Assembly: GCA_017410195.1 (NCBI GenBank)
Contig: JAFQRF010000050.1
Location: forward strand, 1-35,648
Direction: 5' to 3'
DNA from: Clostridia bacterium
GTDB taxonomy: Bacteria > Bacillota > Clostridia > Oscillospirales > Acutalibacteraceae
DNA: 35,648 nt
The translations under genes and the position numbers were made by a program. Shown in pieces: positions 1,521-21,380 of this stretch. How positions within the stretch are numbered: position 1 is the stretch's first letter; each line of letters begins with the position of its first letter. The notes beneath the pieces are model-generated. The model was not told the origin of the DNA. It made no database searches and saw only the letters and a program-made list of their open reading frames with translations.

Positions 1521-2837
1521 ATGAACAAGTTTAACTTATCTAAGCAAAAGATACTTATTCTGGCTATCAGTGCAATCGTTGTAATCGGCGGTGCGGTAGC
1601 AGCCGTTGCTATCTTCAGAAATACCGATAAGGCAAAGGAAGATACAACAACCTCGGCAACCGTTCAGCAGTATGTTGAAGAAACTTATTTTGCCGATGTT
1701 CCCGTTTTTGTTACAGACGAAGACAACTCAACCGTAACAGACCCCTCGGGAAATGCTCTCACAACAATGAAGAGAGTTGTCCAGACAACAAGAAGAGTTG
1801 CCAATAACAAAGCAACAACCAAGAAGCCTGCCGCAAATGCAGGCAAGAACCCCAACGCAGGCGGTGCAAACAATGCAACAACCAAGCACCCCAATCAGGA
1901 AGACAAGCTTGTTGATAATGTAATCGGTGAGGGCGGAAGCCAGTTCGCAGGCTACAGATATAATTCTGCAGGTGACTTCTACTACACAGACGATAAGGAC
2001 TGCTGGCAGAAGAATGCGGGCTACAACGAAGTTTACGATAATATGGCTCCCGCAACCGGCATGTTCATCGACCAGGTTCGTATCCGTTTCAATTACGGCG
2101 GTAAGGACTGGATGATTCAGTTCTGGAAGGGTCAGTACGGCTTCCTTCTTGTCGGCGCCGAAATCGGTGTTTATACCGCTCCCGGCGGAACATATAAGGG
2201 CGACACAAGCGGTGTTAACCACTATAACTGTGCAGACCAGGAAGACTGGCTCAATATGCAGCTTGACTGCTACTGGAGCGAAAACAACAACGGTCACTAC
2301 AAGAAGATTTTCACAAGAGAATACGGTAAGTACTGGTGGGCAACGGGCTTCGTTAAGGGTCAGCTCACAAAGTACACAATCCCCAAGACCGAGCTTAAGG
2401 TTAAAGGCAGAATTACATTCAAGTCAACCGAAATGGCAAACCTCTTTGTTTACGGTCTCAGAGATTCGGGCTTTGTAAGAGCTGCAGGCTCAGGTCAGCT
2501 TGTTGATGACTCCTACTATCAGAGCGGTGCTGATGTATGGGTTCTCTGGTCAACTATTTATCACGACTGCTTTGTTAAGCAGGACGGCGGAAACGAGCCT
2601 GCCGCAACAACCAAGGCTCCCGCAACAACCAAAGCCCCCGCTACAACCAAAGTCCCCGCTACAACAGTTAAGGCTACCGAGCCTACAACGGTTAAAGCAA
2701 CAGAGCCCACAACCGTTAAGCCCACAGAGCCTATAACAGAAGAAACAACTGTTGAACCCGTTAAAGAAGACAACAAGTCTGAGGAAAACAAGGCGAACGA
2801 AAATGCTGAGAACAAAGGCGAAAACGCTGCTTCTTAA
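1521..2837 (+). CDS. Membrane-anchored extracellular protein with DUF4474-type domain (copy 2) and Thr/Pro-rich tail
   Basis: This is a tandem paralog of the preceding gene, 438 residues, with an AAGGAGG site 8 nt before the ATG. The N-terminus carries one hydrophobic anchor (about residues 10-32), then a Thr/Asn/Lys-rich linker. The conserved domain follows, with WKGQY at W202, AEIGVY near 214, HYNCA, and WWATGF at W272-W273. Unlike copy 1 it has an added C-terminal tail from about residue 357: repeated TTKAPA and TEPTTVK units, then a Lys/Glu/Asn-rich end. That tail is probably extended and possibly O-glycosylated or wall-associated. There is no LPXTG signal or second membrane segment. Its activity is unknown; a binding or structural role at the surface is only an inference. 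Confidence 0.8.
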   Translation: MNKFNLSKQKILILAISAIVVIGGAVAAVAIFRNTDKAKEDTTTSATVQQYVEETYFADVPVFVTDEDNSTVTDPSGNALTTMKRVVQTTRRVANNKATTKKPAANAGKNPNAGGANNATTKHPNQEDKLVDNVIGEGGSQFAGYRYNSAGDFYYTDDKDCWQKNAGYNEVYDNMAPATGMFIDQVRIRFNYGGKDWMIQFWKGQYGFLLVGAEIGVYTAPGGTYKGDTSGVNHYNCADQEDWLNMQLDCYWSENNNGHYKKIFTREYGKYWWATGFVKGQLTKYTIPKTELKVKGRITFKSTEMANLFVYGLRDSGFVRAAGSGQLVDDSYYQSGADVWVLWSTIYHDCFVKQDGGNEPAATTKAPATTKAPATTKVPATTVKATEPTTVKATEPTTVKPTEPITEETTVEPVKEDNKSEENKANENAENKGENAAS

Positions 2838-18149: not shown

Positions 18150-19310
18150 TCATTTTTCAAGAAACATTCTGCTGTATCTCGGTTTGATGTCGAGCGAGCC
18201 GTCGCCCTTGAGAGTTGTTACGGTAACGCCGAGTACCCATTCGCTTTCCGGTAAGCCGAAATTTGTGCCGTGGTGGTAAAGATAGCCTCCGGGAAGGTTA
18301 TAAACAAAATAAACGCCCTTATATAATGCACACCAGTCGTTGACGTGGTCATGACCGACGAAAACTGCCTTGGTTGTGCCTTTTTCTTCGATTGCGGCAA
18401 ACATTCCGCTGTTATATGGTGAACATCCGACGCTTTCCCACTGCTCACCGTAGAGGACTTCGTATTCGCCCGTGGGTGCATATCTTCCGCCCTCAACCTC
18501 TTTGAAAACATCAGCGAATTCCGGGAAGGCGATGTGCATATACATCATTGAATCAGCGTGGCCGTATTTCTTCATAAGAGCATCGGTTTCGTTTTTGTAG
18601 AATTCAATCTGTTCTTTTTTGAGGAAGTCATAGCCGTTGACATCGGCGGGAATTCCGTATGCTTTCTTGTCTCTTTCAAGCATATCTCTGCCCGAATCAA
18701 AAAGGAAAAGAGTCTGTCTGTGCCTGCCGCCTTCACCGAGAATGTTTATTGTATAGTTGCCGTAGCCGAAAAGCTCCTCGGGACCGAATTTGCATAGGCA
18801 GTGGTCATAATCGGTGAAGCTTTTCCAGAGAAGCCATTTATAGAAGCCTCTGTCCTCACGGGTTTCGTGATTGCCGAAAACCGCCGCCCAGTAAACGCCG
18901 ATTTCCTCCATCATCTGAGCAAACTGGATTGCCTCAATCTGCTGGAATTTGCCAAGAATAACGTCGCCCGTGAGGATAACAAGGTCGGGCTTGACCTCTT
19001 TGATATGTCTGGTGAAGTATTCAACGATCTTTCTGTTTTGTGCATTATCATCGCTGAAATGGAGGTCTGTTGTTGTCACGATAACAAAGTCTTTGTCCGT
19101 AGGATTGCCGTTTTTGTCAACCTTTGCGATTGTTGTTGAATTATCATCCTGAGAAATAATTTTTACGTCTGTTTTGATTTTGTGAGAATCGTCCGCCTTG
19201 CAATAGAGCAAAGACGGCTTCTTTCCGTCTGTTGCTTTGTATACTGCATTTGCCGCAGCAAGATACGCCTTGATTGCGCTCTGCCGAACAAAGCCCCATG
19301 CTTTATACAT
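18150..19310 (-). CDS. Calcineurin-like metallophosphoesterase
   Basis: About 386 residues. The metal-binding blocks are in order: TTDLHFSDD, LTGDVILG, AVFGNHE, a later MYMHIAFPEF, and FVGHDHVND near the end. This resembles the purple-acid-phosphatase/Dcr2-like branch rather than the nucleases. An N-terminal stretch (about 1-30) is helical but not a convincing signal peptide. The start is chosen at the ATG at 19310, which follows AAAGGTGG; the longer frame would need a TTG at 19343 with no ribosome binding site. It is first of three minus-strand genes with the O-acetyltransferase and the YdjC-like deacetylase. Its substrate is unknown. Confidence 0.85.
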   Translation of the reverse strand: MYKAWGFVRQSAIKAYLAAANAVYKATDGKKPSLLYCKADDSHKIKTDVKIISQDDNSTTIAKVDKNGNPTDKDFVIVTTTDLHFSDDNAQNRKIVEYFTRHIKEVKPDLVILTGDVILGKFQQIEAIQFAQMMEEIGVYWAAVFGNHETREDRGFYKWLLWKSFTDYDHCLCKFGPEELFGYGNYTINILGEGGRHRQTLFLFDSGRDMLERDKKAYGIPADVNGYDFLKKEQIEFYKNETDALMKKYGHADSMMYMHIAFPEFADVFKEVEGGRYAPTGEYEVLYGEQWESVGCSPYNSGMFAAIEEKGTTKAVFVGHDHVNDWCALYKGVYFVYNLPGGYLYHHGTNFGLPESEWVLGVTVTTLKGDGSLDIKPRYSRMFLEK

Positions 19311-19497
19311 TATATATAACCACCTTTGATTTTGATAAGTCAATTATATTGCCGAGTGCTTTCTTTGTCAATGATTTGAGGAATAATATTATTTTTTGCG
19401 AATACAATTCAAAAGGGAGTTTTATTGGACACAAGATATCCTATAATGCAGTTGTAAGGTAAAAAGCCAATGAATTCTTAGCGTGAGAGGAGCAAAA

Positions 19498-19530: not shown

Positions 19531-19599
19531 AAATAAATCAAAAAGCTTTTGAGAAAAAACATATAATATGTCGGATAGCACAAATTGTGGTCGCATCGC

Positions 19600-19628
19600 T
19601 TGACAGCGCATATATGTTGTGGTAAAAT
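19600..19628 (+). promoter_or_regulatory. Upstream promoter P1 of the 91-residue membrane protein gene
   Basis: TTGACA (19600-19605), a 17-nt spacer and TAAAAT (19623-19628). It lies ahead of all the LexA-like boxes. Confidence 0.75.
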
Positions 19629-19646
19629 GGAATCACAAAAGAAGAA

Positions 19647-19743
19647 CGAAAAAATGTTCGACAAAAATCGAACAAATGTATTGACAAACGAATGTTTGTT
19701 TGCTATAATAAATCACACAGAACAAATGTTTAACATCTGTTCG
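19647..19743 (+). promoter_or_regulatory. Cluster of LexA-like (SOS box) sites over promoter P2
   Basis: Four 14-nt sites match the Gram-positive LexA consensus CGAACRNRYGTTYC at 11 or 12 of 14 positions: CGAAAAAATGTTCG (19647), CGAACAAATGTATT (19669), CGAATGTTTGTTTG (19689) and AGAACAAATGTTTA (19719). A weaker fifth, TTAACATCTGTTCG, is at 19730. The second touches the -35 of P2, the third fills its spacer, and the fourth lies just downstream of the -10. The starts of the first three are about two helical turns apart. A TetR-like repressor is a possible alternative. Confidence 0.6.
19681..19709 (+). promoter_or_regulatory. Promoter P2: perfect consensus sigma-A promoter overlapped by operator-like sites
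   Basis: TTGACA (19681-19686), a 17-nt spacer and TATAAT (19704-19709) match the consensus at every position. The spacer is itself nearly palindromic (ACAAAC/GTTTGT flanking GAAT). A promoter this strong implies tight repression. Confidence 0.88.
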
Positions 19744-19761
19744 GCTAAGGAGGACTTGACA

Positions 19762-20037
19762 ATGGCATTTGCAGAAATAATAAAGACATTTTTTGAATTG
19801 GCAGCAGTAGTACTGCTTATAATAGGTTTTGTTAACGAGAAAAAGGTTGTTGCTTTTGAGGTTAAGCTTGCAAGGGCAATAAAAATTCATCTTCGCAACC
19901 GCCGTGTCCGCAAGCAGAGGGAGGCGGCGAGGCAATACAGCGCAAGAGTTCAGATGAGAGCGCCCGAAGATGCTTATTTTGAGGAACCTGTTCTTACGGT
20001 TGTTGAGGATAATAAAAACGCATATTTTGTTGCATAA
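19762..20037 (+). CDS. 91-residue single-TM membrane protein, candidate SOS-induced gene
   Basis: I recognise no family. The reading frame is open further upstream through promoter P2, so the start is set at the ATG at 19762, eight bases after AAGGAGG. Residues about 5-24 form one membrane helix (EIIKTFFELAAVVLLIIGFV). A strongly basic stretch follows (residues 39-58, HLRNRRVRKQREAAR), which by the positive-inside rule puts the C-terminus in the cytoplasm. The last 25 residues are acidic. Regulation by LexA-like boxes plus a short membrane protein recalls SOS-induced division inhibitors such as YneA or SidA, but it has no LysM domain and no sequence resemblance I can claim. That role is inference only. 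A hairpin terminator follows. Confidence 0.75.
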   Translation: MAFAEIIKTFFELAAVVLLIIGFVNEKKVVAFEVKLARAIKIHLRNRRVRKQREAARQYSARVQMRAPEDAYFEEPVLTVVEDNKNAYFVA

Positions 20038-20061
20038 ACTCAAATTTTATTGCAGAAAAAG

Positions 20062-20103
20062 AATCAACATTATAGTCAAAATGGCTGTAATGTTGATTTT
20101 TTT
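20062..20103 (+). terminator. Terminator of the 91-residue protein gene
   Basis: An 11-bp stem (20062-20072 with 20088-20098) is followed by a run of T. Confidence 0.8.
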
Positions 20104-20204: not shown

Positions 20205-21380
20205 ATGAAAAAAATTACAGAAAGAATTATTTCATTGATACTGGTTTTTGCGATTGTCCTGACTGTGTGTTCGGCATTAACTGTCAGTGCATCTGAAAAG
20301 AAGATAACTCAGCCGAGTAATTTTGAAGAATACGAGGATTGGCTTGAACAGGAGGGATATTCCGTTCAAAGAAATACACCTATTGAATTCAAAGCACCGT
20401 CAGGCAAGGATTGGCTTTTAAGAAAGCACTTCAATTTTGTGACCGATGAAATGGTCGGAGAAATATGTGAATACATCAAAGAGGAATCTGGTCTTGATAT
20501 TTTGGGGATTATTACATCGGTTCCCGAAACCAATCAGGCTGTCAGCTTTGTTGTTGAAACATTTGATATTGATACTGCGGCTATGAGAGAAGCGCTATAT
20601 GAAATAAGGTTTAAAATGGATGAGAAGGGTAATCAGCCGATGGCAGTTCTCTTTTATTTTATGGGCCTTTATTTCAGCGTTATGGAAGAATGCAAGGCAT
20701 ACTGTGTTCCTTTAGATGAAGAAAATGTTTATGAAATCGCTCTTGATATCACGCTTAAAGACGGTACGGTTGAAACAATAACCACGGGTGTTGTATTCAA
20801 TTCGGAAACCGGTCAGGCATACGGCAAAAGCGGCAACGGAATTCTCGGCACGGGATATGCTTTCTCGATTCCCGAAGTGTTGCTTTATGCGCAGATCAAT
20901 GCTTGGACAAGAGATTTCGGATTTTGTCTGTTTTATGATATCTTTTCCTACACTACTCCGTTCTTTTTCTATGAAACCCGAAGAATAAAGTTTGATTATG
21001 ACGGACTTGAGTGGATGGTTCAGATATGGAAAGGAAACTATTTTATCTCAAACGGTGCGGAAATCGGTATTTATTCAAGGGATGAGAGCAGTTTCGGTAC
21101 TTACTATGACTGCGCAACCGATGAACAGATGATGAAGATGTCGATGGAGCTTTATCATGGTGATGATCTGATATTCTCCCGTCCCGGGCAGCTTCATTGG
21201 TGGCTTACAGGATTTAAAATCTCATACAATCTTTATCCTGCCGATTCAATGACTTTGAAATTTTCTGTTGAAATGAAAGATAAGGAGATGCTGGATGCAT
21301 TCTGTAACGCAGTTGACAAGCATTATATGCGTGACATGACTTATACCGTTGACGGGCTGACGGTTAATGTTGTGTGGTAA
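20205..21380 (+). CDS. Secreted protein with DUF4474-type domain (copy 3)
   Basis: The 391-residue protein has a Sec signal peptide (residues 1 to about 29, likely cleaved after VSA) instead of the anchor and Thr/Pro linker of copies 1 and 2. Residues 30-240 are a region not shared with those copies. The C-terminal domain repeats their signature: WKGNY at W275, GAEIGIY near 286, YYDCA and HWWLTGF at W332-W333. The same order and spacing of motifs make common ancestry likely; the sequence is clearly more divergent than between copies 1 and 2. AAAGGAG precedes the ATG. It is a one-gene unit with its own promoter and terminator. The function is unknown. Confidence 0.8.
   Translation: MKKITERIISLILVFAIVLTVCSALTVSASEKKITQPSNFEEYEDWLEQEGYSVQRNTPIEFKAPSGKDWLLRKHFNFVTDEMVGEICEYIKEESGLDILGIITSVPETNQAVSFVVETFDIDTAAMREALYEIRFKMDEKGNQPMAVLFYFMGLYFSVMEECKAYCVPLDEENVYEIALDITLKDGTVETITTGVVFNSETGQAYGKSGNGILGTGYAFSIPEVLLYAQINAWTRDFGFCLFYDIFSYTTPFFFYETRRIKFDYDGLEWMVQIWKGNYFISNGAEIGIYSRDESSFGTYYDCATDEQMMKMSMELYHGDDLIFSRPGQLHWWLTGFKISYNLYPADSMTLKFSVEMKDKEMLDAFCNAVDKHYMRDMTYTVDGLTVNVVW

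What the first reader, a model, noticed from the sequence alone, without database searches (positions are those of the whole stretch)
19600..20037. Putative SOS-controlled small membrane protein with a perfect promoter buried in LexA-like boxes
A 91-residue single-TM protein is preceded by two strong promoters. P2 matches the sigma-A consensus perfectly, and at least four sites fitting CGAACRNRYGTTYC at 11-12 of 14 positions cover and flank it. Tight repression plus strong release is the pattern of SOS-induced division inhibitors (YneA in Bacillus, SidA in Caulobacter). The protein has no LysM domain and no family I recognise, so it could be an unrelated solution to the same task. The LexA link is inferred from motif matching by eye.
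Basis: partly seen in the sequence, partly recalled or inferred. Interest (0 to 1): 0.72.

Follow-up and report, generated by a model that had tools for sequence, protein, structure and literature searches.

The report
SOS-controlled small gut-bacterium membrane protein
An uncultured gut bacterium and many of its relatives carry an unrecognised small membrane protein gene whose promoter is packed with binding sites for the DNA-damage repressor LexA, and possibly also with sites for the repressor that senses DNA building blocks, so it looks like a protein made when DNA copying is in trouble.

Summary
A 91-aa single-TM ORF (19762-20037) follows a perfect extended -10 promoter and five LexA-like sites. 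This genome's lexA, recA and uvrB promoters carry the same motif. With a matrix of nine sites from outside the window, the window's six best positions all lie in this promoter. All 27 distinct family loci found in the genus keep three or more sites; six distant relatives keep one to three. Operator bases are far more conserved than their surroundings, and the protein is under purifying selection.

New: promoter P1 carries two NrdR-box-like elements 32 bp apart; their only near match outside coding sequence in the genome is the nrdG promoter. The gene may thus answer to DNA damage (LexA) and to dATP shortage (NrdR). The C-terminus is -VA/-IA in 26 of 26 complete loci, like a proteolysis tag.

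Function is inferred: a division-checkpoint effector is most likely. The protein matches no family, and its predicted topology is opposite to YneA and SosA. LexA control about 0.95, NrdR input about 0.55, division inhibitor about 0.4.

The parts
19575..19590 (+). P1 NrdR-box-like element A (ATAGCACAAATTGTGG); right half intact, left half degenerate
   Evidence: the own nrdG promoter has the same right half AAATTGTGGT
19600..19628 (+). Promoter P1: TTGACA-17-TAAAAT, 11/12
19607..19622 (+). P1 NrdR-box-like element B (CGCATATATGTTGTGG), 32 bp after A, abutting the -10
   Evidence: the only hit above 8 bits in the window with the nrdG-trained pair model
19647..19660 (+). LexA-type site CGAAAAAATGTTCG, 15.4 bits; seen at 8 bits or more only in the nearest relatives
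19669..19682 (+). LexA operator O1 CGAACAAATGTATT, 13.9 bits, runs into the -35; mean majority fraction 0.97 in 25 aligned promoters
19681..19709 (+). Promoter P2: TTGACA-17-TATAAT, 12/12, extended -10
19685..19698 (+). LexA operator O2 CAAACGAATGTTTG, 15.0 bits, in the P2 spacer; mean majority fraction 0.86
19719..19732 (+). LexA operator O3 AGAACAAATGTTTA, 16.6 bits, at the expected transcription start; mean majority fraction 0.94
19730..19743 (+). Weak extra LexA-like site TTAACATCTGTTCG, 11.5 bits, overlapping O3
19747..19753 (+). Ribosome-binding site AAGGAGG
   Evidence: sequence; GGAGG conserved
19762..20037 (+). 91-aa small membrane protein: hydrophobic stretch 6-24, F32-E33 invariant in 24 aligned rows, basic segment about 35-53, variable tail, C-terminal VA
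20057..20103 (+). Intrinsic terminator, so the gene looks like a single-gene unit
   Evidence: -24.8 kcal/mol, z -7.5

Best explanation
The gene encodes a stress-induced small membrane protein of the SOS regulon. Shown by sequence: LexA-type operators cover P2 from the -35 to the start site, match the sites before this genome's own lexA, recA and uvrB, and are conserved across the family. Supported but not proven: P1 carries an NrdR-type box pair like that of nrdG, giving a second, SOS-independent input when dATP falls. Inferred: the protein sits in the membrane with a basic cytoplasmic tail, holds cell division while replication is blocked, and is removed quickly through its conserved C-terminal -VA (read by a cytoplasmic protease such as ClpXP or Lon) when repression returns. 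It would work like SidA, DidA, YneA or SosA without being shown to be related to them.
For: LexA: boxes in the lexA promoter, before uvrB and recA (genes confirmed by NCBIfam). Window sites 19647, 19669, 19685 and 19719 score 13.9-16.6 bits against 12.2-18.9 for nine outside sites, each left out in turn; with a matrix of only the four lexA/uvrB/recA sites they score 12.6-16.5 against 15.4-17.4 for those four, which trained it. 27 of 27 distinct family loci have three or more sites of at least 8 bits within 135 bp of the start; the rest of the 50 loci scanned (duplicates and dropped hits included) has 0.27 per kb; six distant relatives have one to three. Mean majority fraction 0.97 (O1), 0.86 (O2), 0.94 (O3) against 0.59 and 0.41 in the spacer before O1 and the 5' UTR, 25 promoters. 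NrdR: the P1 pair searched in the own genome with up to 2 mismatches hits P1 (0), the nrdG promoter (1) and a place inside a coding ORF (2); with a model from 21 nrdG upstreams, 21 of 26 homologue promoters reach p<0.05 against their own shuffles, and the upstream region holds the best hit of its locus in 18 of 26. The genome has nrdR. Protein: dN/dS 0.05-0.30 in the 19 pairs computed from 16 loci. C-terminus VA in 25 and IA in 1 of 26 complete loci. The tmRNA tag is DNNKVALAA in 10 of 12 relatives read. Division role: small SOS-induced single-TM proteins with that role are known (PMC13396833, PMC6851548, PMC4211646; passages).
Against: No expression or binding data. The genome search that gave the nine outside sites used a motif taken from the window's own box O3, and I kept 9 of its 26 matches outside the window (those not inside long ORFs); genome-wide that motif is not commoner than its reversed control (29 matches against 57). 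One of the nine (L008) stands before no evident gene. No sequence relative of known function. Known Gram-positive inhibitors have an extracellular C-terminus; this one is predicted cytoplasmic. The gene was not found in 15 of 41 genus genomes, among them 5 of the 14 at least 90% complete. NrdR: a model trained on nrdD promoters does not find P1 in the window (13 of 100 shuffles as good); only 8 of 23 homologue upstreams had 5 or fewer of 100 shuffles as good. A strict TTG[TCA]G[GA] pair 31-32 bp apart is in 13 of 23 upstreams. P1 as a whole is hardly more conserved than the spacer (0.65 against 0.59). In L040, L058 and L059 the best nrdG-model hit is element A alone. The window's left half-sites lack the conserved C, and inverting conserved G-C pairs cut NrdR binding 50-60 fold in Streptomyces (PMC9110341, section 10), though the own nrdG element A has the same defect. 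The -VA tag rests on conservation alone.
Confidence: 0.4

Rival explanations
1. A TisB-like membrane-active protein: when SOS is on it weakens the membrane potential and makes cells dormant, rather than acting on the divisome.
For: Small, one hydrophobic stretch, a strong promoter covered by operators, cationic segment after the TM.
Against: A conserved charged segment and an invariant C-terminus after the TM are more than a pore peptide needs. Whether an antisense RNA partner exists was not searched for.
Confidence: 0.2
2. A membrane-anchored helper of DNA repair or of ribonucleotide supply, for example a scaffold for RNR, replisome or nucleoid, induced together with nrdG and recA.
For: Possible shared control with nrdG and shared LexA motif with recA and uvrB; the basic tail could bind nucleic acid or a protein.
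Against: No repair or nucleotide gene was noticed beside it in the loci inspected: the phosphoesterase is upstream in 12 of 23 loci, other neighbours differ (neighbours of 15 loci listed), and the window gene has its own terminator.
Confidence: 0.2
3. The boxes belong to another regulator with a LexA-like motif, and the gene is not part of the SOS response.
For: No induction or binding data exist; the motif is not enriched genome-wide over its reversed control.
Against: The same motif stands before lexA, recA and uvrB in this genome with similar scores.
Confidence: 0.05
4. P1 is an ordinary promoter whose repeated TTGTGGT has nothing to do with NrdR.
For: The nrdD-trained model does not find it in the window; left half-sites are poor; P1 is only slightly more conserved than the spacer.
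Against: The 32-bp spacing, position over the promoter and sequence match nrdG; the distant relative L073 has ACACAATATATTGTGA at the same place, and L046 has ACACAATATATTGTAG.
Confidence: 0.43

Closest known systems
YneA (Bacillus subtilis) / ChiZ
   Same: SOS-induced, small, single TM; division checkpoint is the suspected role here
   Different: YneA has an extracellular LysM domain needed for its activity (PMC13396833, passages); none found here, and the tail is predicted inside
SosA (Staphylococcus aureus)
   Same: SOS-induced single-TM protein without LysM (77 aa); its extreme C-terminus governs turnover
   Different: SosA's C-terminus is extracellular and a likely CtpA target (PMC6851548, passages); the two sequences were not compared directly, only family models were searched
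SidA and DidA (Caulobacter crescentus)
   Same: Small single-TM proteins blocking division under DNA damage, one by an SOS and one by an SOS-independent input (PMC4211646, passages)
   Different: Two separate genes (29 and 71 aa) and DriD as second regulator; here both inputs would meet on one gene
NrdR-controlled nrdG/nrdD promoters, and the NrdR target topA of Pseudomonas aeruginosa
   Same: Box pair 31-32 bp apart laid over the promoter; topA shows that a gene outside RNR can be an NrdR target (PMC4409342, passages)
   Different: topA has a single box; the product here is neither RNR nor topoisomerase
Predicted LexA regulon of Clostridioides difficile
   Same: Same kind of operator (GAACnnnnGTTC/T), and a putative membrane protein, CDR20291_2689, is among the predicted targets (PMC4234289, passages)
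   Different: That protein was not compared with this one

Membership tests
LexA (SOS) regulon of this genome | Operators of the native LexA motif over the promoter | tested here: met
   with the selection caveat given in the Against line
LexA (SOS) regulon of this genome | Operators conserved in orthologues | tested here: met
   27 of 27 distinct genus loci
LexA (SOS) regulon of this genome | Induction by DNA damage, LexA binding | not testable with these tools
   needs bench work
NrdR regulon | Two 16-bp NrdR boxes with a 15-16 bp spacer (31-32 bp start to start) | tested here: inconclusive
   spacing and right halves met; nrdG-trained model p<0.05 in 21 of 26; left halves poor, nrdD-trained model negative for the window
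NrdR regulon | Binding of dATP/ATP-loaded NrdR | not testable with these tools
   needs bench work
YneA/ChiZ division inhibitors | LysM domain | tested here: not met
   no LysM match in Pfam or NCBIfam scans
SosA/DivS-type inhibitors | Single TM with extracellular C-terminus | tested here: inconclusive
   one hydrophobic stretch; charges predict the C-terminus inside (positive-inside rule recalled); no experimental topology
SOS-induced division inhibitors (as a function) | Blocks division when made | not testable with these tools
   needs bench work

The most novel reading that the evidence does not exclude
A previously undescribed checkpoint gene in Oscillospiraceae-like gut bacteria that joins two alarms on one gene: a LexA-repressed promoter for DNA damage and an NrdR-repressed promoter for dNTP shortage, driving a short-lived membrane protein that stops division whenever replication stalls for either reason.
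Probability: 0.23. Interest if true: 0.75.

Novelty: new variant of a known kind. Interest (0 to 1): 0.55.

Why it matters
SOS-induced division inhibitors are small membrane proteins that show little homology to one another (PMC6851548, passages). The papers inspected describe them in Bacillus, Listeria, Staphylococcus, actinobacteria and Caulobacter; the listings showed none for this gut lineage. If NrdR control is real, the nucleotide-pool sensor and the DNA-damage repressor would meet on a single gene, a simple and directly testable way for cells to notice stalled replication with or without SOS.

Tried and rejected
Rejected as chance: the Pfam Hjc match (best E 0.022, window 0.037, below cut-off; best of any Pfam family 0.011), NCBIfam (best 0.016), PHROG (best 0.019) and the PDB match (0.41). 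Viral contigs: 16 pattern hits, none confirmed. Four order-level hits (L076-L079) have stops inside the match and carry no boxes; dropped. L143 (54 aa, one weak 9.2-bit site) and L144 (106 aa, no box) are partial genus matches left out of the 27. The minus-strand ORF 19633-20043 was taken as a shadow ORF. The nrdD-trained NrdR test (20 promoters) was negative for the window and is told as evidence against. In the nrdG training set 2 of 23 upstreams were skipped, several nrdG starts were placed too far downstream or upstream, and box A was taken simply as the bases 32 upstream of box B. L134 was left out (its pair is visible). No tmRNA over cut-off in the own assembly, so the tag comes from 12 relatives; one reads otherwise entirely (L117) and one is a variant (L120). 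Two translations were off by one base and one script failed; none was used. No structure model was obtained.

Papers: passages of PMC4234289, PMC13396833, PMC6851548, PMC4409342, PMC12051234, PMC9110341 (also its section 10), PMC4211646 and PMC6051672; all others only in listings. In the listings for NrdR with LexA, NrdR with cell division (15 of 47 shown) and LexA with Ruminococcaceae no title or abstract start described such a gene; this is an open-access library only. The NrdR consensus used was recalled.

Because of the weaker P1 facts I lowered NrdR from 0.6 to 0.55, the novel case from 0.27 to 0.23 and the composite from 0.45 to 0.4, and raised its rival from 0.38 to 0.43.

Full report
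What is there. The window is one contig of a 2.36-Mb, 88-contig genome. The closest named records are MAGs labelled Clostridia or Oscillospiraceae; 9 of the 11 titles name a ruminant hindgut. Between a divergent metallophosphoesterase gene (18150-19343, minus) and a DUF4474 gene (20205-21380, plus) stands a 91-codon ORF, 19762-20037, with a ribosome-binding site and a strong terminator at 20057-20103. Promoter P2 is a perfect TTGACA-17-TATAAT with extended -10; the -35 of P1 lies 81 bp before that of P2, with 11 of 12 matches.

Is it a gene? Yes. It was found in 26 of 41 genus genomes (9 of the 14 that are at least 90% complete and at most 5% contaminated), 27 distinct loci because one genome, possibly a mixed MAG, has two copies. 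dN/dS lies between 0.05 and 0.30 in the 19 pairs computed from 16 of these loci. Among 295 genomes of the order six further relatives without stops were found, all in the same family (L070-L075); four hits with stops were dropped. The phosphoesterase is upstream in 12 of the 23 loci L031-L053 and other neighbours differ (flanks of 1.5-2.5 kb), so gene and promoter are kept largely apart from their neighbours.

Are the boxes LexA sites? The single lexA gene has CAAACAAATGTTTG and TGAACATTTGTGCT in its promoter. A genome search with GAACAAATGTTY, up to one mismatch, gives 29 matches, 3 of them in this promoter; among the others are sites just before uvrB and recA (confirmed by NCBIfam), a serine recombinase, and a small ORF with a tyrosine integrase. 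That motif came from the window box O3, and its reversed control is commoner genome-wide (57), so numbers alone prove nothing; what counts is where the sites stand and the lexA promoter, which was read on its own. A matrix from nine sites outside the window scores the window sites at 15.4, 13.9, 15.0, 16.6 and 11.5 bits; the nine, each left out in turn, score 12.2-18.9. With the four lexA, uvrB and recA sites alone the window's four main sites score 12.6-16.5 and the four themselves 15.4-17.4. The six best positions of the window by the nine-site matrix are all in this promoter, and none of 1000 shuffles of the 130 bp reaches five sites.

Is the operator conserved? In 27 of 27 distinct family loci three or more sites of at least 8 bits lie within 135 bp of the start codon, against 0.27 per kb in the remaining DNA of the 50 loci scanned. 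In 25 aligned promoters the mean majority fraction is 0.97 in O1, 0.86 in O2 and 0.94 in O3, and every base of the -10 is kept at 0.95 or more, but 0.59 between P1 and O1 and 0.41 in the 5' UTR. The usual layout is O1 running into the -35, O2 in the spacer, O3 at the start site. The sites at 19647 and 19730 have counterparts only in the nearest relatives. L070-L073 keep O1 and O3; L074 and L075, with proteins of 54-57 aa, have one perfect CGAACAAATGTTCG near the start.

P1 and NrdR. Two TTGTGG-like elements 32 bp apart (31 in L036), one before the -35 and one abutting the -10, are found by a strict pattern in 13 of the 23 upstreams L031-L053. NrdR sites are two 16-bp boxes with commonly 15-16 bp between (PMC12051234, passages). 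The pair pattern of P1, searched in the whole own genome with up to two mismatches, hits three places: P1 (0), the nrdG promoter (1) and a place inside a coding ORF (2). The genome encodes NrdR, NrdD and NrdG. A pair model from 21 nrdG upstreams of the genus gives p<0.05 in 21 of 26 homologue promoters (200 shuffles each, lowest possible 0.005); P1 is the only hit above 8 bits in the window, and the upstream region holds the top hit of its locus in 18 of 26. Against this: the nrdD-trained model does not single out P1 of the window (13 of 100 shuffles as good) and gives 5 or fewer of 100 in only 8 of 23; L035, L045 and L050-L052 fail the nrdG model; in L040, L058 and L059 its best hit is element A alone; P1 is barely more conserved than the spacer (0.65 against 0.59); and the left half-sites are poor. 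I put NrdR control at about 0.55.

The protein. One hydrophobic stretch (6-24), an acidic residue kept inside it (E12, D in a few), F32-E33 invariant in the 24 aligned rows, then a strongly basic segment, so the positive-inside rule (recalled) puts the tail in the cytoplasm. The tail varies but closes with VA in 25 and IA in 1 of 26 complete loci (L051 is cut by a contig end), and with VA or IA in 4 of the 6 distant relatives. A hydrophobic C-terminus of this kind resembles a ClpXP-type tag (recalled); the tmRNA tag is DNNKVALAA in 10 of 12 relatives read. No Pfam, NCBIfam, PHROG or PDB match is significant and no viral relative was found.

Function. A strong promoter covered by operators, small size, one TM and a likely turnover signal fit a division-checkpoint protein such as YneA, SosA, SidA or DidA. 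It is not a member of the LysM group (tested, not met), and the predicted topology differs from SosA and YneA. If P1 answers to NrdR, the gene would combine what Caulobacter splits between SidA (SOS) and DidA (SOS-independent; PMC4211646, passages). An NrdR target outside RNR has a precedent in topA of Pseudomonas, where recA and lexA expression also shifts in an nrdR mutant (PMC4409342, passages). These are analogies, not tests. A membrane-active toxin or a helper of repair or RNR cannot be excluded.

Verdict. Observation confirmed; SOS control strongly supported by sequence; function inferred; the possible second, nucleotide-pool input is the new and most interesting element.

Noticed in passing
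L016:1250-1263 (own genome contig 28): A strong LexA-type site (CAAACAAATGTTCG, 18.9 bits) about 160-175 bp before a gene with Sigma70 region 2 and 4 domains: possibly an SOS-linked sigma factor.
   Followed up: partly
L015:1501-1512 (own genome contig 23): LexA-type site GAACGAATGTTC about 50 bp before a gene with Sigma70 region 4 and HTH_3 domains.
   Followed up: partly
L008:146-157 (own genome contig 10): LexA-type site GAACATTTGTTT near a contig end, with no evident gene behind it; the neighbouring DUF2500 gene (298-642, minus) points towards it and ends before it.
   Followed up: partly
L003:1501-1512 and L012:1501-1512: LexA-type sites directly before a serine recombinase and before a small ORF followed by a tyrosine integrase: mobile elements that may be wired to SOS.
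   Followed up: partly
L144 (G334 contig 14): A 106-aa protein with a similar N-terminal TM segment but no LexA boxes, in a genome that also has two full copies of the family; a non-SOS relative or chance similarity.
   Followed up: no
window 1521-2837 and 20205-21380: Two DUF4474 proteins in the same 35-kb window, one right behind the small membrane protein gene here and in L032 and L034.
   Followed up: no
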